Below are positions 45 to 26,388 of a stretch of DNA of 40,014 bases, in pieces. Source of the DNA: Bacteroidetes bacterium RIFCSPLOWO2_12_FULL_35_15 (GTDB lineage: Bacteria > Bacteroidota > Bacteroidia > 2-12-FULL-35-15); assembly GCA_001769385.1 (NCBI GenBank), contig MEPB01000098.1:1-40014 (forward strand), given 5' to 3'. How positions within the stretch are numbered: position 1 is the stretch's first letter; the number at the start of each line of letters is the position of its first letter. The notes below the pieces were generated by a model. It made no database searches, was not told where the DNA came from, and saw nothing but the letters and a program-made list of their open reading frames with translations. Both the position numbers and the translations under genes were made by a program.

Positions 45-1028
45 TTAATTATGGATAAGATTCTTAATTATTGATTTAGTATTGGCTGAATCTACGGGTG
101 TAAGATAAAAATAAGCAAAACGATTCAATAATATTCTTCCTGAATGATCGTCAGTGCAACCGAAAATAATATCACTTGTTTTCAAATGATTAATAGATTT
201 TCTATCATTAATCCAACTTTTTTCTACGGAGATTTTGGTGCCCAATCCAATTTCCTTAATATATTTTTTAAGAACATCTACCTTATATTTACCAACATCC
301 TTCAATTTTGCGCCATGTAACCGGTTAAGGTTCGATTCTTCAATAGTATCTTTATCAATAAGACATAATTCCCCAACCCCCAAACGTGTTAATAACAAAG
401 CGGTTACTGAACCTGTTGCCCCGGCACCAACAATTGATATTTTCAATTTTGATAAATCCTGCACAAGTGAGTTGCCGAATGCCAATTGCTGCCTGTTAAA
501 TGCTTCCGGTGATTTGAAGCTTGAAGTCCTGTCTGGATAATTAATTCTAAAAGATTCCCCAATAATTCTAATTTTGGAAATAGGTTCATGTGATAAATCA
601 GGTTTCCAAACTCTCCCAATCAATGAACCATCGGGCATCATAATAAGACTGGCATGAGGTCTATTGCCCCCATTACGGTTAAATGCTAATTTAAAAAGGT
701 GATGCTCCCCAATATCATCCACTGATGAAAAATGATTAACACCTTTTGGATGATTGTGAATTAATATTACAGCAAAATTTTTAGATTCCGCTTTTGCTAA
801 AACCTTAATAAAATGATTATTGTTCCAGCTTACTTGATAGCACTCAGATGATAGAAGGTCATTCTCAGACAAAATGTGTATCTCTTTTGTAAGCAGCCTA
901 TCTTCATTATCAATAACCAAGGAGCGGCCACAAATAATAAAAGCAACTCGTTCCTTACCATCCTCTTGTAACAGGTGATTTTTAAGATTCGAATAATGTT
1001 CTTCCTGTATAGTGATTGAATATTTCAT
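45..1028 (-). CDS. JAB peptidase / ThiF-type E1 fusion, C-terminally truncated
   Basis: Two-domain protein of 327 aa. Residues about 1-140 form a JAB/MPN (JAMM) metallopeptidase with a complete HxHx7SxxD motif (H91, H93, S101, D104) and a likely catalytic Glu (E26). In this family the domain removes ubiquitin-like proteins. Residues about 180-327 start an E1/ThiF adenylation domain, with GAGATG at 201-206, a DxDxxExSNLNR stretch (D225-R236), and the FGCTDD crossover region near 290. E1 enzymes adenylate the C-terminal Gly of a ubiquitin-like protein. The start overlaps the upstream E2-like gene by ATGA, which supports co-translation. After residue 311 the similarity stops and an unrelated tail leads to a TAA, so the C-terminal part of the E1 fold, where a catalytic Cys would lie, is missing. 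It is probably non-functional as an E1; the JAB half looks intact. Confidence 0.85.
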   Translation of the reverse strand: MKYSITIQEEHYSNLKNHLLQEDGKERVAFIICGRSLVIDNEDRLLTKEIHILSENDLLSSECYQVSWNNNHFIKVLAKAESKNFAVILIHNHPKGVNHFSSVDDIGEHHLFKLAFNRNGGNRPHASLIMMPDGSLIGRVWKPDLSHEPISKIRIIGESFRINYPDRTSSFKSPEAFNRQQLAFGNSLVQDLSKLKISIVGAGATGSVTALLLTRLGVGELCLIDKDTIEESNLNRLHGAKLKDVGKYKVDVLKKYIKEIGLGTKISVEKSWINDRKSINHLKTSDIIFGCTDDHSGRILLNRFAYFYLTPVDSANTKSIIKNLIHN

Positions 1029-1403
1029 GATGCTATTTCAAGAGCTACTTGTACTTTTTTTAAATAAGTATGAATTCCATCCACGCCACTCCTCCATTCA
1101 TTAGCAGGATAATGTCTTGACCATCGTTGCCATTGTTTCCCTTCAAAAAGCACTTTTGTTTGTGTTTGTCTGGCCGGTCTATTTGAAGGAGCCAATAATA
1201 TATCCGGATTGAAATACCACATATCAGGCCTTACTTCAGGATAGCCGTTTGGTAGTATGATTAATAAATCGGATGATTGCAGATTTTCCAGTTGGTAAAA
1301 ACCAGTTTCTTATAATTAAACCATTCCTGTTAGCATCAATTTTTTCTTCAAATTGATAGCCCTTCTCTAATAAATAATCTCTGTCGAATTCAGGTAAAAA
1401 CAT
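1025..1403 (-). pseudogene. E2-like protein (Prok-E2 family E type), frameshifted
   Basis: The ATG at 1403 opens a frame beginning MFLPEFDRDYLLEKGYQFEE that stops early. The next frame carries the rest: an LPNGYP motif, PDMWYFNP, WQRWSRH, then an EWRSGVDGI stretch ending in a helix. Removing one base from the run of five A at 1297-1301 (plus strand) joins the two halves into a protein of about 126 aa resembling the prokaryotic E2 family E fold. The reconstructed protein contains no cysteine at all, so it could not carry a thioester in the usual way. It overlaps the upstream gene by one base (TAATG) and the downstream JAB-E1 gene by ATGA. The frameshift may be a real mutation or a sequencing slip in the homopolymer. 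Confidence 0.75.
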
Positions 1404-1645
1404 TATCCTTCAGTTGTAGTTTTAGCTCCTGTAAAAAAATGTTCTCTACCGGGTTGTGCTAAATCTATTTGTTCGTTATCAGCGATTTCTTTATCCTGAT
1501 TAGGGCCGCTCACTTTAAGCCATACCCCATAATTTGCTGGTGCTGCAACTAAAGCTTTAATTTTTGCTCCTGTAATAAATTGTTCTTCAACCTCAAATGT
1601 TTTTTGATCAATTAGAATTTTGAATTTTTGTTCTGGTTTCGGCAT
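1403..1645 (-). CDS. Ubiquitin-like protein (multiubiquitin-type domain)
   Basis: Protein of 80 aa forming one beta-grasp-like unit: a KFKILIDQKTFEV first hairpin, a central helix region (TGAKIKALV), a VWLKVSG strand, then DNEQIDLAQPGREHFFTG. The pattern (hydrophobic strands, then a PGxxxFxT ending) matches the multiubiquitin-type domain found beside prokaryotic E1, E2 and JAB genes. It ends in Gly, as a protein meant for C-terminal activation would. It is the first gene of a tightly packed three-gene operon with the E2-like and JAB-E1 genes. Only one domain copy is present, whereas many relatives carry several. The context makes it the likely modifier; its targets are unknown. Confidence 0.75.
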   Translation of the reverse strand: MPKPEQKFKILIDQKTFEVEEQFITGAKIKALVAAPANYGVWLKVSGPNQDKEIADNEQIDLAQPGREHFFTGAKTTTEG

Positions 1646-2679: not shown

Positions 2680-3644
2680 GGCAATGTCCTATTAACAGGT
2701 AGCAATTGGTTTGACTTTATTTGTTATTAGTGCGTTGTAAAGGAATAATTCAAATATTTTTTCTTCTCCTTTAAAATTGTATTTGAAGCAGAACTCATCC
2801 AAATAATTTTGCAAATATTTTCTTGTGATTTTATGATACTGCCCAACAATTCCTCTTTTTACAAGGCTCCAAAAACCTTCAATATTATTTGTATGGTATG
2901 CTCCTCTTACGTATTCGTCTTTTTCATGATTCACAACTTCGTGACCTCGATACTTTTTATTTAATCCGGAATAGGCTCCAAAACCATCGCTGACAATGAC
3001 TGATTTTCTGTCTACTCGATTATTGATAATTGGTTTAAGTGATTTACCATCTGCATGCTCAACAACTTGAGTACTCACCCTTCCTGATCTGGATAACAAT
3101 CCAAACACAGGAACTTTGTGCATTGCGCCAGTGGCTACTTTACCTTGAGTATGCAATGCTTCTCTTACTTTTTTATGTTTGTTCTTTGTTTGACCTCCTA
3201 CATATGTTTCGTCAACTTCAACGATTCCTTTCAGTAGCTTTTTATCCGTATTTTGCATTGCATCACGCAGCCTTTTTTGAACGTACCACGCTGTATCTTT
3301 TGTTACATCTATATGACGGGCCAATTGTCTTGATGATATTCCTTTTTTTGCATGCATTACAAGACTTATGGCAATAAACCATTTTGATAAAGGCAAATTA
3401 GAAGCTTCAAATATAGTTCCTACCAAAACACTGAAGCTTGTATTACAACTGTTGCAATGATGTCGTAATTGTTTCTTCATTGCTGATACCTTATCGGATT
3501 GGCAATATGGGCATACTGGCTTTTCTTGCCATCTTGCTTTCTCCAAGTAGTTGATACAACGCTTTTGTGTATTCAACTTTTTTGTAATTTCTATTAGTTC
3601 CATTTTACAAATATAATAATTCTACCTTATCATAGGACATTGCC
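2680..3644 (-). mobile_element. IS1595-family insertion sequence, 965 bp, complete
   Basis: The element is bounded by inverted terminal repeats. The left end starts GGCAATGTCCTAT; the right end read in reverse is GGCAATGTCCTAT followed by GATAAGGTAG, matching ATTAACAGGTAG imperfectly. Perfect 8 bp direct repeats flank it. It carries one transposase gene filling almost the whole element. The perfect ends and duplications and the intact transposase frame indicate a recent, possibly still active, insertion. Confidence 0.92.
2692..3603 (-). CDS. IS1595-family transposase
   Basis: Protein of 303 aa. The N-terminal zinc ribbon has two Cys pairs (CPYCQSDKV and CNSCNTSF, residues about 31-58), and a helix-turn-helix-like segment follows (GISSRQLARHIDVTKDTAW). 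The catalytic domain is of the ISXO2/DDE_Tnp_IS1595 type: a first Asp in VEVDETYVGG, a second in VSDGFGAY, and a third acidic position in the NNIEGFWS region. It binds the element's terminal repeats and catalyses cut-and-paste transposition. Full length for the family, with no internal stop. The start codon lies 41 bp inside the right end, leaving little room for a promoter, which may be carried in the end itself. Confidence 0.95.
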   Translation of the reverse strand: MELIEITKKLNTQKRCINYLEKARWQEKPVCPYCQSDKVSAMKKQLRHHCNSCNTSFSVLVGTIFEASNLPLSKWFIAISLVMHAKKGISSRQLARHIDVTKDTAWYVQKRLRDAMQNTDKKLLKGIVEVDETYVGGQTKNKHKKVREALHTQGKVATGAMHKVPVFGLLSRSGRVSTQVVEHADGKSLKPIINNRVDRKSVIVSDGFGAYSGLNKKYRGHEVVNHEKDEYVRGAYHTNNIEGFWSLVKRGIVGQYHKITRKYLQNYLDEFCFKYNFKGEEKIFELFLYNALITNKVKPIATC

Positions 3645-4488: not shown

Positions 4489-5436
4489 ATGAATAGTGAG
4501 AAGTATGAACATTTGGAAGATAATTTAAATAAGGCAGGAACTTCATTAAAAGACATAGAGAGGGTATATCCGAAAATTTGTGAGTCGTTTATCCCCCTTT
4601 CCATAACAGGAGTTTCTCCTCGGACATATTTCTATTGGAAAAAATCCAATTTACTAGCTCCTTCTGCTACGAAAAAAGAAGGAGAGTGGGTCCGTCTAAA
4701 TTTAATTGAATATGTATGGATAAAAATAATCCAGACTATGCGTGATTTTGGTGTCCCGTTCGAAACAATAAAAGAAGCGAAGGTGTTGTTATTTTCAAAT
4801 ACATTAAAAATATTAATTGATGAAAAAGAAGGGTATTTAAATTTTCTTGAGAAGGAAAGTGATATGTCAATTGAAAAAATAAATTCAATAAAAAAATTGG
4901 TTGATTTGCTGACTGAAGACATCTTAAATGTTCCAGAAGAGTATGAAATTTACACAACTCTACTTGGGTCAATCGTGTCTGATCTATTAATAAGAAATGA
5001 TAGGGGGGCAATTATTATTACTAAAAACGCAAGCCGATTTGAAATTGGATATTTTTCATTTAAATCAATGATGGAATTTCAAAAAATAGTTTTCCCTTTA
5101 TTAGAGTTGCCATGTATCCAAATACCCATTAGGAAATTAATTGAAGATTTTTTTGATGATCCTAAAAGTGAAAAATTTGTTGATAGCTTCGAATTATTGA
5201 ATTTAAAAGAGAAAAAGGTAATAGAAGCTATCCGTAAAAAGGATTTTAAGGAAATTATTATTAAACAAGACAGCAAAGAGGAATCAATAATTATAGAAGT
5301 GGAAAAGGATGGAGCAATAATGGATCAAAAGGCGAAGGAAGTCAAACGTATTTTAGGTTTGAACGAATATTCGGAGGTAACAATCAAGTATAGAAACGAC
5401 AAACATTTATATTTTAAAAATAAAACTAGATTATAA
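4489..5436 (+). CDS. MerR-like winged-helix regulator of the island
   Basis: Protein of 315 aa. Residues about 38-100 resemble a MerR-type DNA-binding domain: SPRTYFYWKKSNLLAPS is the helix-turn-helix with the characteristic wing-side hydrophobics, followed by WVRLNLIEYVWIKIIQTMRDFGVPFETIKEAK, the usual second helical pair. The remaining 215 residues are acidic/basic mixed alpha-helical and match no ligand-binding domain I recognise. A C-terminal KEVKRILGLNEYSEVTIKY segment looks like a small alpha/beta module. It sits upstream of the small HTH-like gene and integrase in the same direction, so it may control excision or integration. It has its own promoter. The role is inferred from position. 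Confidence 0.65.
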   Translation: MNSEKYEHLEDNLNKAGTSLKDIERVYPKICESFIPLSITGVSPRTYFYWKKSNLLAPSATKKEGEWVRLNLIEYVWIKIIQTMRDFGVPFETIKEAKVLLFSNTLKILIDEKEGYLNFLEKESDMSIEKINSIKKLVDLLTEDILNVPEEYEIYTTLLGSIVSDLLIRNDRGAIIITKNASRFEIGYFSFKSMMEFQKIVFPLLELPCIQIPIRKLIEDFFDDPKSEKFVDSFELLNLKEKKVIEAIRKKDFKEIIIKQDSKEESIIIEVEKDGAIMDQKAKEVKRILGLNEYSEVTIKYRNDKHLYFKNKTRL

Positions 5437-5519: not shown

Positions 5520-5942
5520 ATGTTAGATTTAATTGAAAAAGAAAGGGATGTTAAAAACATACTATCAGACAAAATAAACATAAAAGATATTATGGCAACA
5601 CTTCATGTTGCTGATGTCAGAGCAGCAATGCGATGGTGCAAAAAAAAAAGTATTTTGGTTTTAAAATTTGGCAAGGAGAGGTATGCTAATCTGATTGATT
5701 TTGAGTTAGCGATTGATAGACCATTTATAGAGTCATTAAAAGTGAAGCACCCTGAAAATTGGAAGGAAATTTATTCAGCCTATAAGAAGAATGATTACAT
5801 TGCAATTACAGAACAAATGTTTCAATCGGAACCAACTATAAAGACGAAATTTGAAGTAAAAGGAGAAGTAGCAAACAGTTTTATAAAAAAAATAAAACAA
5901 AAATTAAAGGAAAATGGACGAAGCAAAATTATTAAAGAATAA
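5520..5942 (+). CDS. Small HTH-like protein upstream of the integrase
   Basis: Protein of 140 aa. Residues about 20-60 (IKDIMATLHVADVRAAMRWC, then KKSILVLKFGKERYANLIDF) look like a helix-turn-helix with a short beta wing, the layout seen in excisionase-type proteins and MerR-like DNA-binding modules. The C-terminus is a Lys-rich helix. The last 29 bp overlap the start of the integrase gene, showing translational coupling. An excisionase (recombination directionality) role is plausible from this coupling but is not shown by a recognised family match. Confidence 0.55.
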   Translation: MLDLIEKERDVKNILSDKINIKDIMATLHVADVRAAMRWCKKKSILVLKFGKERYANLIDFELAIDRPFIESLKVKHPENWKEIYSAYKKNDYIAITEQMFQSEPTIKTKFEVKGEVANSFIKKIKQKLKENGRSKIIKE

Positions 5943-7233
5943 CAAAATCAAAGGGCTTTGTGTTTATTGTACCAAATGTAAAATCAAAGTGGCTGGTAAA
6001 TGTGGTTCTTCCGGAAAAAGAATCGGCTCTTGTACTTATAAGGACAAACATAAATACAAGGTCATTGCTTATATTCCAGGAAGTGATAATGCTGTAAAAA
6101 CAAAGTTGCTTGATACAAGAGATGAAAATGAAGCAATTTTACAAGCTTTTGCATATCGAGCAGAACTTGAAAAATGTAATTATTCAACTAAATTAGTTGC
6201 AACAAAAACAACAGTCCCAAAAACTATATTGGATGCAATGGCTTATTACATTGCATTTTTGAATAATGATACACCTCATGAACAAGAGCACAAGCAACGT
6301 ACAAAAGCGCATTTAGATGAAGTAAGTAGATACTTCAATTACTTTACGGAATATTTACAAACAATGGACATAGATCCGTCTATTTTTCCATTTGAAAAAC
6401 TCGATAAAAATGTTGTTGGTAAATTAAAATCATATCTTCTGAAAACAAGGAACTACGCTCCCAAAACATATAATAAATACATTGGACTTATGAGAGTGTT
6501 TGTAAACTTCTTGGTGGAAGAATTTGATTTCAGAATTAAAAATCCTTTCAAGGGTTTTAAAAGATTGCACTCTGAGATCAATATTAATACTATTTCAAGT
6601 ATAGAATTTCATGCTCTTTTGGAAGTAATCAAACTGGAGAATGGAACACAGATTTATGAAGAACGTAAGTCAAAAAAGAAATATAAAAAGAATCGTTACC
6701 GCCCATGGTTGAAAGATGCTATGTTACTCGCATTATTGACCGGAAGGAGGAGAGAAGAAATTGTAAATATGAAATTTAGCAGGATCCTTGAGAATGAAAC
6801 TGGTGATCCTATTACTATCTGCATCGAAGATTTTAAAGTCAATCGTAGCAATGATTTATCTGCAAAAGAATCTGTAAAAGTAGTTTATGTTCCGGTAATT
6901 TCTCCTCTTAAGAAGTTGTTATTTGAGTTAGGATATAAGGAAAACAAAGGGAAAGAGATATACATTCTTGCTCCTGAAGAAACAATGGAACGCAAAACTA
7001 TGATGAATTTTATTAGCAAATCGTTTTCCCATTACTACAAACAATTGAATACTGGTAAGGATTTAACCTTCTATGACCTTCGAAAAACATATATTTCTCA
7101 TCTATATGCAGCTCATGGTGAGAAGGCGCGTATTATCACGAAACATTCTGGAGAGGAAGTCATGTTGAACCATTATATTGATGAAAAAGTGATTGCTGAA
7201 GTTGCAATGGATTTTGGATTGTTTGGTTTGTAA
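5914..7233 (+). CDS. Tyrosine recombinase (phage-type integrase)
   Basis: Protein of 439 aa. The N-terminal segment has a Cys cluster (CVYCTKC and further Cys up to residue about 41), then an arm-binding-like domain, a SAM-like core-binding domain (about 110-215, ending NKYIGLMRVFVNFLVEEF) and a catalytic domain. Catalytic residues are R279 (TGRRREE), R390 in YDLRKTY, H411 (KHSGEE) and the nucleophile Y421 (NHYID). The usual box II HxxR reads YxxR here (Y387). It catalyses site-specific recombination between the island and its tRNA target. It starts inside the preceding small gene and ends 178 bp before tRNA-Met. The Cys-rich N-terminal extension is unusual for simple integrases and may bind zinc. 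Confidence 0.92.
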   Translation: MDEAKLLKNNKIKGLCVYCTKCKIKVAGKCGSSGKRIGSCTYKDKHKYKVIAYIPGSDNAVKTKLLDTRDENEAILQAFAYRAELEKCNYSTKLVATKTTVPKTILDAMAYYIAFLNNDTPHEQEHKQRTKAHLDEVSRYFNYFTEYLQTMDIDPSIFPFEKLDKNVVGKLKSYLLKTRNYAPKTYNKYIGLMRVFVNFLVEEFDFRIKNPFKGFKRLHSEININTISSIEFHALLEVIKLENGTQIYEERKSKKKYKKNRYRPWLKDAMLLALLTGRRREEIVNMKFSRILENETGDPITICIEDFKVNRSNDLSAKESVKVVYVPVISPLKKLLFELGYKENKGKEIYILAPEETMERKTMMNFISKSFSHYYKQLNTGKDLTFYDLRKTYISHLYAAHGEKARIITKHSGEEVMLNHYIDEKVIAEVAMDFGLFGL

Positions 7234-7318
7234 ACAAATCAAAAGAAAAAAACAAGAATTATTGGGATCATTATTCGAGTCCATTTTATGATAAAAAAAA
7301 ATTAAAATTTTTGAAAAA

Positions 7319-7342
7319 AAACCCGACTCCAAACCCGACTCC
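7319..7342. repeat. 12 bp tandem direct repeat near the attachment side
   Basis: AAACCCGACTCC occurs twice back to back between the integrase stop and the tRNA gene. Short direct repeats in this place are typical of integrase arm-type binding sites; that role is inference. Confidence 0.5.
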
Positions 7343-7381
7343 AAGAGATAAATTTCACCAATTCAAATATTCATAAAAACA

Positions 7382-7406: not shown

Positions 7407-7411
7407 CTGAG

Positions 7412-7485
7412 TAGCGAAAAGGGGAGTTGAACCCCTGACCTCAGGGTTATGAATCCTGCGCTCTAACCATCTGAGCTACCTCGCC
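7412..7485 (-). tRNA. tRNA-Met (CAT anticodon)
   Basis: 74 nt cloverleaf. The acceptor GGCGAGG pairs with TTTCGCT with three G-U pairs; the D arm is GCTC...GAGC, the anticodon loop TTCATAA, and the T arm AGGGG-TTCAACT-CCCCT; the discriminator is A and the 3' CCA is not encoded. The anticodon stem has an A-C mismatch at its last pair. Elongator rather than initiator identity is likely because the three G-C pairs that mark initiators at the base of the anticodon stem are absent. The 3' end faces the integrase, making this gene the island's integration target. Confidence 0.93.
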
Positions 7486-23772: not shown

Positions 23773-26388
23773 TTATTGTCCTCTTTCCTTATCCAAATAC
23801 GATTCAACAACATCAATAGCATTATCAATTACATCGCTTAATGCGGTAATAAATGTTCCTGGTTTCGCGATGGACAATGCGTGTTTTAACGCTTCAACTT
23901 CCTTCGGAATGTATTCGTAGGATTGTTTTGGATTCACTTCTTTAATACCTTCTACCAATAATTTTACAATGTCATCCGCAAGCCGGCCTCTCAAAAATTT
24001 ATCCTGTCTGATTATAATATGATCAAACATTTGTGCAGAAATTCTTCCCATATCCCGGATGTCTTCATCTCTCCTGTCGCCTGTTCCGGTAATGATTCCA
24101 ATCTTATGTGGAGATTCAATAGTAGATAAGAATTCTTTAATGCCTCTGAAACCATCAGCATTATGGGCGAAATCGATCATTACTTTATATTCCTTGAAAT
24201 CAAAGATATTCATGCGCCCAGGTGTTTGGGCTGCAGAAGGAATAAATGTTTCCAGACTTAATTTAATATCTTCGATGGTAAAGCCATAAACATAAGAAGC
24301 AAGTGTAGCAGCCAAAACATTATATGTCATAAATGTTACTTTGCCACCAAACGTTAATGGAATATGAGATATTTTGTCAACCCTGAATTTCCAGTCTCCT
24401 TTTTTTATGGTGATGTATCCATTCTCGCAGATAGCAGCAATACCACCTGTTTTACAATGTTCAACGATGATAGGATTGTTTTCGTTGATACTGAAATAAG
24501 CTACTTTGCAGTCGGTTGTTTTTGAAATAGCGGCACAATATTCATTGTCTGCATTTAAAACAACATACCCATCACGCTTTACTGCCCTTGCAACAACGCC
24601 TTTAACATTGGCCATGTCTTTTAACGTATTGATATCCGACAAGCCCATGTGATCTTCCTGAATGTTAGTTACAACAGCAACATCACATTTCCCGAATCCC
24701 AAACCGGCACGCAATATACCACCACGAGCGGTTTCTAACACTGCAAATTCAACAGTAGGATCTTTTAAAATAAATTCAGCACTAACAGGGCCTGTTGTAT
24801 CACCTTTGGTTAGCATAGAGTTCTGAACATAGATACCATCAGATGTTGTAAAGCCAACGCGGAACCCATTGTTTTTTACAATGTGTGCAATTAAACGGGT
24901 AGTAGTTGTTTTGCCATTGGTGCCTGTAACGGCTATAATAGGAATTCTGCATGATTTTCCCGGAGGATATAACATATCAATAACAGGAGCGGCAACATTG
25001 CGAGGTAATCCTTTTGCAGGAGCAAGATGCATCCTGAAACCCGGAGCAGCATTTACTTCCAGAACAACACCTCCTGTTGATTCCAGTGGCTCACTTAAGT
25101 TTGTGGCCATAATATCAATACCACAAATATCTAAACCTATTACACGTGAAATACGTTCACAAATAAAAATATTATGTGGATGCACAATGTCAGTTATGTC
25201 GGTAGAAGTGCCTCCGGTACTTAAATTAGCAGTTCCTTTTAAATAACACTTTTCGCCCTTTTTTAAAATTGTTTCAAGAGTATAATTAAGTTTTGCAAGT
25301 TGATCCTGAGTTTCCCGGTCAATGCTAATTTCAGTTAGTACATTTTCATGACCGTAACCTCTTCTCGGATCTTTATTTTCAGTTTCAATTAAAAGTTGAA
25401 TGGTAGAAACGCCATCGCCAATCACATTTGCCGGTTCACGTAAAGCAGCTGCAATAAAACGATTATTGATTACTAATATTCGAAAATCGTATCCCGAAAT
25501 AAATCGTTCAACAATTATTTTGCGGGAGAATTTCTTAGCATGTTCAAATGCAGCTTTTGCTTCATCAAGTGTTTTTACATTGATTGATGCTCCTTTTCCA
25601 TGGTTACCATCCAACGGTTTAAACACCAATGGGAAACCAACTTTCGAAATAACTTCCTCTACTTCCGATTCATAAGCAATACACATTCCTTTCGCAACAG
25701 GTATTGCGGCATCTTCCAGCATACGTTTTGTTTCATCTTTATTACTTGCCAGATCAACTGCAATGGAACTGGTTCTGTCTGTCATGGTAGCACGAAAACG
25801 TACCTGATTTTTTCCATAACCTAATTGCACCAATGATTCTTTATTTAAGCGAATAAAAGGAATATCGCGGGCAACAGCTTCATCAACAATACTTCCGGTA
25901 CTTGGTCCAAAACGTTCCTTTTCACGCATTTGGCGCATTACTTTAATATCTTCATCAAGATCATATGCACTTCCTTCAATTAAGGCTTCTGCGATTTTAA
26001 CAGATGCTTTTGCTGCATATACACCAACTGTTTCTTCCATGTAGGAAAATACAACATTGTACATTCCTTTTGTTCCCGATCCTCTTGTGCGCCCGAATCC
26101 ACATTCCATGCCTGCTAACGTTTGGATCTCCAAGGCGATGTGTTCAATTACATGTCCCATCCAGGTACCATCCTTAACACGCTCAAAAAAACCACCTTCA
26201 TGATCTTTAGAACATCGGTGCTTTAGCATGGAAGGAAATAATTGTGCTAAACGTTCAGCAAAACCATCTATTTTATCCGTTGGACGCTCTTCCAATGCTC
26301 CCAGGTCAAGCTTCATGACAATTAACTTTTTTCTGTAATTAGACCAATAGTTAGGGCCTCTGAGGGTTTTAATTTCAAGTATTTTCAT
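23773..26388 (-). CDS. cphA: Cyanophycin synthetase
   Basis: Protein of 871 aa, full length for CphA. The N-terminal domain (about 1-160) includes GTWMGHVIEHIALEIQTLAG and GFGRTRGSGTKGMYNVVF. The ATP-grasp domain (about 200-470) includes RFRATMTDRTSSIAVDLASN, FKPLDGNHGKGASI and EVNAAPGFRMH. The Mur-ligase-like domain has the P-loop VTGTNGKTTTTRLIAH near 487, ETARGGILRAGLGF, TNIQEDHMG, and a C-terminal IDFAHNADGF/GIITGTGDRRDEDI region. It polymerises Asp and Arg into multi-L-arginyl-poly-L-aspartate, using ATP at two sites. It is divergent from cyanophycinase 199 bp away, so synthesis and breakdown genes form a compact pair. Confidence 0.96.
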   Translation of the reverse strand: MKILEIKTLRGPNYWSNYRKKLIVMKLDLGALEERPTDKIDGFAERLAQLFPSMLKHRCSKDHEGGFFERVKDGTWMGHVIEHIALEIQTLAGMECGFGRTRGSGTKGMYNVVFSYMEETVGVYAAKASVKIAEALIEGSAYDLDEDIKVMRQMREKERFGPSTGSIVDEAVARDIPFIRLNKESLVQLGYGKNQVRFRATMTDRTSSIAVDLASNKDETKRMLEDAAIPVAKGMCIAYESEVEEVISKVGFPLVFKPLDGNHGKGASINVKTLDEAKAAFEHAKKFSRKIIVERFISGYDFRILVINNRFIAAALREPANVIGDGVSTIQLLIETENKDPRRGYGHENVLTEISIDRETQDQLAKLNYTLETILKKGEKCYLKGTANLSTGGTSTDITDIVHPHNIFICERISRVIGLDICGIDIMATNLSEPLESTGGVVLEVNAAPGFRMHLAPAKGLPRNVAAPVIDMLYPPGKSCRIPIIAVTGTNGKTTTTRLIAHIVKNNGFRVGFTTSDGIYVQNSMLTKGDTTGPVSAEFILKDPTVEFAVLETARGGILRAGLGFGKCDVAVVTNIQEDHMGLSDINTLKDMANVKGVVARAVKRDGYVVLNADNEYCAAISKTTDCKVAYFSINENNPIIVEHCKTGGIAAICENGYITIKKGDWKFRVDKISHIPLTFGGKVTFMTYNVLAATLASYVYGFTIEDIKLSLETFIPSAAQTPGRMNIFDFKEYKVMIDFAHNADGFRGIKEFLSTIESPHKIGIITGTGDRRDEDIRDMGRISAQMFDHIIIRQDKFLRGRLADDIVKLLVEGIKEVNPKQSYEYIPKEVEALKHALSIAKPGTFITALSDVIDNAIDVVESYLDKERGQ

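What the first reader, a model, noticed from the sequence alone, without database searches (positions are those of the whole stretch)
45..1645. Compact ubiquitin-like conjugation operon on a mobile island: UBL, E2-like, JAB-E1 fusion
Three overlapping genes encode a single multiubiquitin-type domain ending in Gly, an E2 family E-like protein and a deubiquitinase-activating-enzyme fusion in one chain. Prokaryotic E1/E2/JAB/UBL sets are known from comparative genomics, and relatives (CBASS Cap2/Cap3, Bil) act in phage defence. This combination, with the JAB at the N-terminus of the E1, only one UBL domain and an E2 lacking Cys, sits on an integrase island as a defence cargo would. Here it is broken, but intact relatives could be a distinct system.
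Basis: partly seen in the sequence, partly recalled or inferred. Interest (0 to 1): 0.75.

Follow-up and report, generated by a model that had tools for sequence, protein, structure and literature searches.

The report
Decayed bacterial ubiquitin-like (Bub) operon
A broken copy of a bacterial ubiquitin-like protein-tagging operon, of a type predicted in 2006 and since named Bub and studied structurally, sits on a mobile island next to a tRNA gene; the type is known and this copy is a recent wreck.

Summary
The three genes are really there (minus strand, 45-1645): a single-domain ubiquitin-like protein ending in Gly (Multi_ubiq, E 3.9e-14), an E2-family-E protein (Prok-E2_E) and a JAB-ThiF fusion. 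The E2 is split by a 5-nt deletion relative to four relatives; the JAB-E1 keeps about 312 of 462 residues, then meets unrelated sequence at the contig end. The gene set is not new: it is operon type 6e of Iyer et al. 2006, and the best PDB matches are Citrobacter BubCD and BubB of the Bub pathway. Of 83 related loci, all have the E1, 82 DUF6527 (the fourth gene, not seen here), 79 the E2, 78 a UBL; the E2 has no conserved Cys. The mobile island is: integrase beside tRNA-Met, a 48-bp repeat of the tRNA 3' end on contig C62, and an end motif at only these two places. Flanks of 36 relatives match more PADLOC families than 36 control stretches. Protection against phage by Bub is undemonstrated according to an EMBO J 2026 paper (passages).

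The parts
1403..1645 (-). Ubiquitin-like protein (BubA-like, single Multi_ubiq domain, C-terminal Gly80); reading frame intact
   Evidence: PF14452 E 3.9e-14; predicted beta-grasp, mean pLDDT 82, best Foldseek match bacterial multi-ubiquitin protein 8u38 E 1.3e-6; Gly80 the same in 18 of 18 aligned (window plus 17 of the 23 single-domain loci), last residue in 15 of 18
1236..1403 (-). E2-like protein (BubB-like), N-terminal piece before the frameshift
   Evidence: PF14462 E 5.1e-5, under its cut-off; 5-nt deletion relative to L005-L008
1025..1222 (-). E2-like protein (BubB-like), C-terminal piece with the WSRH motif, in another frame
   Evidence: PF14462 E 3e-19
45..1028 (-). JAB-E1 (BubCD-like) chain, homologous to residue about 312 of 462; JAMM residues and E1 nucleotide-site residues present
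   Evidence: ThiF E 2.1e-33; Citrobacter BubCD E 4.6e-37 over residues 7-314; truncation; residues
1..92 (.). Sequence unlike the rest of E1 in L005-L008, at the very start of contig C98; origin unknown (inserted element, rearrangement or assembly fault)
   Evidence: single match in the own genome
2692..3603 (-). IS1595-family transposase; element bounded by inverted repeats 2680-2702/3622-3644 and, read by eye, an 8-bp CACGGAAA repeat
   Evidence: DDE_Tnp_IS1595 E 1.3e-40; inverted repeat I1, 87% complementary; sequence
5914..7233 (+). Tyrosine integrase of the island
   Evidence: Phage_int_SAM_5 E 2.8e-5; Phage_integrase E 6.1e-5, under its cut-off
7318..7343 (+). 26-bp end motif, identical copy on contig C62 inside the other island end
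7411..7458 (-). 48-bp attachment-site repeat = 3' part of tRNA-Met, exact copy on contig C62
7411..7485 (-). tRNA-Met (CAT), integration site

Best explanation
The operon is a recently decayed member of the Bub (type 6e) family of bacterial ubiquitin-like conjugation operons, carried by an integrase island inserted in a tRNA-Met gene. In the intact form the E1 half of the JAB-E1 chain adenylates the C-terminal Gly of the UBL. The Cys-less E2-like protein, which keeps an E2 fold and an invariant Ser-Arg-His, binds the E1 and helps pass the UBL to a target. The JAB half removes UBL from targets or trims tails, and the DUF6527 Zn-finger-like protein completes the machine, perhaps choosing targets. 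Shown here: family membership by sequence and fold, operon layout, conserved and lost residues, decay, island ends. Inferred: adenylation, transfer, deconjugation, the role of DUF6527. Recalled only: that the pathway runs without E1 and E2 catalytic cysteines, probably through oxyester intermediates (Ye et al. 2026; paper not held, nothing of it read). In this genome, as assembled, the operon cannot work.
For: Iyer 2006 type 6e text matches feature by feature. PDB: BubCD E 4.6e-37 with the window protein, BubB E 5.5e-26 with the E2 profile, BubB Z 20.4, rmsd 1.3 over 122 residues with the predicted fold of the L005 E2, bacterial multi-ubiquitin proteins for the UBL. Of 83 loci, 82 have DUF6527, 79 the E2 and 78 a UBL beside the E1. 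JAMM residues E 79/79, H 80/81, H 80/81, S 81/81, D 81/81 of sequences reaching those columns, window included. E2: no column with Cys in more than 21 of 79; D62, S97, R98, H99 in 79 of 79. Plasmid pSYSX of Synechocystis, an organism Iyer names for the Zn-finger gene, carries HTH, ImmA/IrrE, multiubiquitin, E2/UBC, ThiF and DUF6527 genes in a row. Decay: deletion and truncation; dN/dS of window pairs 0.125 and 0.074 (UBL), 0.057 and 0.082 (E1), like the L005-L006 pair (0.094, 0.091), so the damage is recent. Island.
Against: The primary Bub papers could not be read, so the family's definition is taken from passages of the EMBO J paper and PDB titles. A DUF6527 relative (L010) had no PDB match, so its role and its Bub letter are not established here. 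The truncation lies at a contig end, so part of it could be an assembly artefact, and the 5-nt deletion could not be checked against reads. The DUF6527 gene was not found in this genome.
Confidence: 0.93

Rival explanations
1. A distinct, undescribed ubiquitin-like system, defined by N-terminal JAB on E1, one UBL and a Cys-less E2.
For: Single-UBL operons are a sizeable part of the set: 23 of 78 loci with a UBL show one detected domain (my profile may miss weak domains). The window and its four closest relatives share a UBL tail ending exactly in Gly.
Against: Iyer 2006 already lists one to three UBL repeats, JAB at the N-terminus of E1, an inactive E2 and a Zn-finger gene. The L005 E1 aligns with Citrobacter BubCD over residues 5-416 of 462 and the E2 profile with BubB over 4-122 of 126.
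Confidence: 0.05
2. A functional anti-phage system in this host.
For: Flanks of relatives: 408 ORFs from 36 loci matched 73, 36 and 83 PADLOC families in three batches; 332 ORFs from 36 control stretches of the same contigs matched 16, 3 and 4 (against 66, 67, 72). capP matched 21 flanking ORFs (6, 9, 6) and no control ORF.
Against: This copy is broken. Bub had not been shown to protect against phage in the EMBO J paper. capP and capH are regulators of such operons, so not independent neighbours; several loci are near-duplicates; several families can match one ORF, so family counts are not gene counts; control places were picked by hand.
Confidence: 0.02
3. A sulfur-carrier or cofactor pathway (ThiS/MoaD with ThiF/MoeB) rather than protein conjugation.
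For: The E1 part belongs to the ThiF family.
Against: The operon has an E2-fold partner and a JAMM domain; Iyer notes the absence of JAB proteins from the thiamine and molybdopterin pathways (passage). The three other ThiF-like matches in the genome are only 26-32% identical over the ThiF part.
Confidence: 0.02

Closest known systems
Bub (bacterial ubiquitination-like) operons; solved Citrobacter BubCD (9ea4, 9ea5, 9eav), BubB (9eae, 9eav), BubA fragment (9ea8)
   Same: JAB-E1 in one chain, Cys-less E2-like partner of the same fold (Z 20.4), multi-ubiquitin-type UBL; in relatives, CapH/CapP-type genes upstream
   Different: This copy is broken; single UBL domain with Gly already terminal; DUF6527 not found here; E2 of L005 about 30% identical to BubB
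Operon type 6e of Iyer, Burroughs and Aravind 2006 (PMC1779556)
   Same: JAB-E1 order, one to three UBLs, inactive E2; relatives also carry a DUF6527 gene, which I take for the C-x3-C ... H-x2-C protein of that paper
   Different: Bacteroidota are not named in the type 6e passage; DUF6527 not found in this genome
Bil (BilABCD)
   Same: UBL, E1, E2 and JAB in one operon
   Different: A separate JAB (BilC) and a two-domain BilA there (passage in PMC11354881); here JAB is fused to E1 and there is one UBL domain. That BilB has a catalytic Cys is recalled
CBASS Cap2/Cap3
   Same: E1-like and JAB-like domains
   Different: No CD-NTase among the window ORFs scanned; the L005 E1 matches Cap2 weakly and only over the ThiF part (E 2.5e-5)

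Membership tests
Bub / type 6e | JAB domain fused N-terminally to a ThiF/E1 domain | tested here: met
   JAMM residues complete, Prok-JAB score just under its cut-off
Bub / type 6e | One to three multi-ubiquitin-type beta-grasp domains with a terminal Gly | tested here: met
Bub / type 6e | E2/RWD-like fold protein without conserved Cys | tested here: met
   Prok-E2_E; fold of the intact L005 homologue; no conserved Cys. The window gene itself is frameshifted
Bub / type 6e | Zn-finger protein with C-x3-C ... H-x2-C (DUF6527); named by Iyer as also encoded by this type | tested here: inconclusive
   Not found in the genome (no positive control), but the operon is cut at a contig end before this gene could follow; present in 82 of 83 relatives
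Bub / type 6e | CapW, CapH+CapP or CapK+CapS regulator upstream (frequent, not defining: 219 of 544 for the first two together and 59 of 544, EMBO J paper passages) | tested here: inconclusive
   None recognised among the window ORFs scanned (small ORFs at 1720-2558 not scanned; a MerR-like protein lies at 4489-5436). Relatives: Peptidase_M78 in 23 of 132 upstream ORFs scanned
Bub | UBL conjugation in a biochemical assay | not testable with these tools
   -
Bil | Separate JAB protein and two-domain BilA | tested here: not met
   JAB fused to E1 and one UBL domain
CBASS type II | CD-NTase gene beside Cap2/Cap3 | tested here: inconclusive
   None among the window ORFs scanned, but the contig ends inside the E1 gene

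The most novel reading that the evidence does not exclude
The single-UBL operons of Bacteroidota and relatives (window, L005-L008, L010, L086) are a separate Bub subtype: one UBL with an already mature Gly end, so no processing and no tandem-domain filament, a relay that must use the invariant Ser-Arg-His of the E2 in place of Cys, and control by something other than CapH/CapP, spread by tRNA-targeted integrase islands.
Probability: 0.12. Interest if true: 0.4.

Novelty: new member of a known kind. Interest (0 to 1): 0.17.

Why it matters
It adds a Bacteroidota-like member with a minimal, single-UBL layout to the Bub family and shows one dying on a mobile island. Close relatives with open frames (L005-L008: UBL 80-90% identical; JAB-E1 69-86% over its first 312 residues) are compact material for testing what Bub does, which is still open.

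Tried and rejected
Distinct-system reading: rejected on the 2006 description and the PDB matches. Spacing argument that E2 Ser97 replaces the catalytic Cys: the Ser-to-Trp spacing varies (6 in 65, 8 in 10, 9 in 3, 5 in 1 of 79), so I do not claim it; no residue-level superposition was possible. Empty-site test: 23 of 30 loci around the gene right of the island, the own locus included, hold a tRNA-Met in their short flanks, but the mlaD-like gene beyond the C62 repeat gave no tblastn match in those 30 loci, so no empty site was shown and the C62 end rests on the two repeats alone. Inserted element at bases 1-92: no second copy in the genome. Other Bub copy or missing pieces in the genome: none found. 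Phage records: no match to the L005 E1 at E 1e-10. Eukaryotic E2s by sequence profile: none; BubB was the only E2 listed and the other rows were chance-level. DUF6527: 0 papers in the held library, which says nothing about papers not held. The other paper searches led, on Bub by name, only to PMC13373217 and PMC12687455 in the listings shown. Left out before counts: L083 (E1 piece under 200 aa) from the E1 columns; five long upstream ORFs from alignment A1 (132 of 137 scanned); the PADLOC comparison used 36 of the 83 loci, chosen because their contigs were long enough for a control stretch, and hand-picked control places.

Full report
What is there. On the minus strand of the window, bases 1645 down to 45, three overlapping genes run toward the contig start, away from an integrase. 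Pfam names them Multi_ubiq (80 aa, E 3.9e-14), Prok-E2_E (two pieces, E 5.1e-5 and 3e-19) and Prok-JAB plus ThiF (E 7e-5, just under its cut-off, and 2.1e-33). The window is bases 1-40014 of contig C98 of a 5.39 Mb, 110-contig genome.

What is broken. Aligned with four relatives (L005-L008), the E2 lacks 5 nt near its middle, which splits the frame. The JAB-E1 follows its relatives to residue about 312, then bases 92-1 are unlike them. In L005-L008 the chain is 462 aa and a further gene follows at once, in L005 named DUF6527 by Pfam. Neither the E1 C-terminal part nor DUF6527 was found elsewhere in the genome (no positive control there). Window-to-relative dN/dS (UBL 0.125 and 0.074, E1 0.057 and 0.082) is like that between L005 and L006 (0.094 and 0.091), so selection held until recently.

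What family it is. Iyer et al. 2006 (section 14 read; other passages) describe a fifth operon type, row 6e: E1 mostly with JAB fused at the N-terminus, a protein of one to three Ub-like repeats, an E2/RWD-like domain lacking the cysteine, and a protein with C-x3-C-x(35-38)-H-x2-C. This is the same set. Solved structures agree. Citrobacter BubCD matches the window protein at E 4.6e-37. BubB matches the E2 profile at E 5.5e-26 and the predicted fold of the L005 E2 (pLDDT 91) with Z 20.4, rmsd 1.3 over 122 residues, against Z 9.7 for the next entry, a eukaryotic E2. The window UBL is predicted as a beta-grasp (pLDDT 82), nearest to bacterial multi-ubiquitin proteins 8u38, 9d5b, 9cd2 and 9d59, and next to them the BubA fragment 9ea8. 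The EMBO J 2026 paper PMC13373217 (passages) names the family Bub, counts 544 operons, and says protection against phage has not been demonstrated; a 2025 review, PMC12687455 (passage), says bacterial UBL systems, Bil and Bub among them, appear to act mainly in phage defence. Ye et al. 2026 and Gong et al. 2025, cited there, are not held. What I say of a cysteine-free, oxyester mechanism is recalled, not read. The mutant D104A named in the PDB titles lies in or next to the JAMM motif by chain numbering; the exact residue was not resolved.

Relatives. A scan of GTDB species genomes gave 80 loci (81 found), and three more came from related genomes (L086-L088). With profiles built from these loci, all 83 have the E1, 82 DUF6527 (not found in L049), 79 the E2 and 78 a UBL; the five loci lacking UBL or E2 start within about 160 bases of a contig end. 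One UBL domain is detected in 23 of 78, two in 54, and one locus (L062) is unclear. In the column counts the JAMM residues are nearly invariant; the E2 has no conserved Cys (best column 21 of 79; 16 of 79 have none at all) but D62, Q94, S97, R98, H99, W105, R106 and D110 in 79 of 79; E1 has C290 in all 83 rows (82 relatives and the window) and Cys at 343, 346, 439 and 442 in 80 of 82, 75 of 82, 79 of 81 and 79 of 82. In plasmid records, 120 match the L005 E1 at E 1e-20, of which 58 are predicted conjugative, 22 mobilizable and 40 non-mobilizable; phage records: none at 1e-10. In the genus, 2 of 36 genomes (own included, some of them incomplete) have matches that span JAB and E1, and G002 has two.

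Island. An integrase (5914-7233) lies beside tRNA-Met (7411-7485). The last 48 bp of that tRNA recur exactly on contig C62 (1095-1142 of L132), where no tRNA gene is found. A 26-bp motif just inside both repeats is identical, and its 21-bp core occurs nowhere else in the genome with up to one mismatch. So C98 and C62 very likely hold the two ends of one element. An empty site could not be shown.

Defence context. Flanking ORFs of 36 loci (408 ORFs, 101,578 aa) matched 73, 36 and 83 PADLOC families at E 1e-10 in three batches. Stretches from the same contigs (332 ORFs, 90,066 aa, 36 stretches) matched 16, 3 and 4. Only 25 families per test batch are shown, several families can match one ORF, some loci are near-duplicates, and the controls were picked by hand, so this is a tendency and not a statistic. 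capP matched 21 flanking ORFs and no control ORF. In 132 of 137 upstream ORFs, Peptidase_M78 matched 23 and HTH_3 17, which fits the CapH+CapP control named in the EMBO J paper. In the window no such gene was recognised among the ORFs scanned.

Verdict. Its value is as a pointer to minimal Bacteroidota-like relatives with open frames.

Noticed in passing
L132 (contig C62 of the own genome) 1-662, other end of the island: C-terminal part of a reverse transcriptase (RVT_1 E 4.3e-9) with a GLPIGNLTSQ stretch that, from recall, resembles diversity-generating retroelement enzymes; cut by the contig start. BLAST against the window showed no template or variable repeat.
   Followed up: partly
window 2680-3644: Complete-looking IS1595-family element with inverted repeats and, by eye, an 8-bp target duplication.
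   Followed up: partly
window 7318-7343 and L132 995-1020: 26-bp tandem motif at both island ends, a candidate integrase arm site; its 21-bp core occurs at only these two places in the genome.
   Followed up: yes
G002 (same genus), contigs C44 and C6: Two Bub-type JAB-E1 genes in one genome, 56% and 38% identical to the window protein.
   Followed up: no
L008: Record titled Clostridiales, but its JAB-E1 is 69% identical to this copy; the label may be wrong or the operon recently transferred.
   Followed up: no
window 23773-26388 (-): Cyanophycin synthetase-like protein (Cyanophycin_syn, RimK, Mur ligase domains).
   Followed up: no
E1 alignment: Two of 82 E1 sequences have Ser at position 343 (L087, from its sequence, seems to be one) and six have Thr at 346, so the Cys pairs are not universal.
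   Followed up: no
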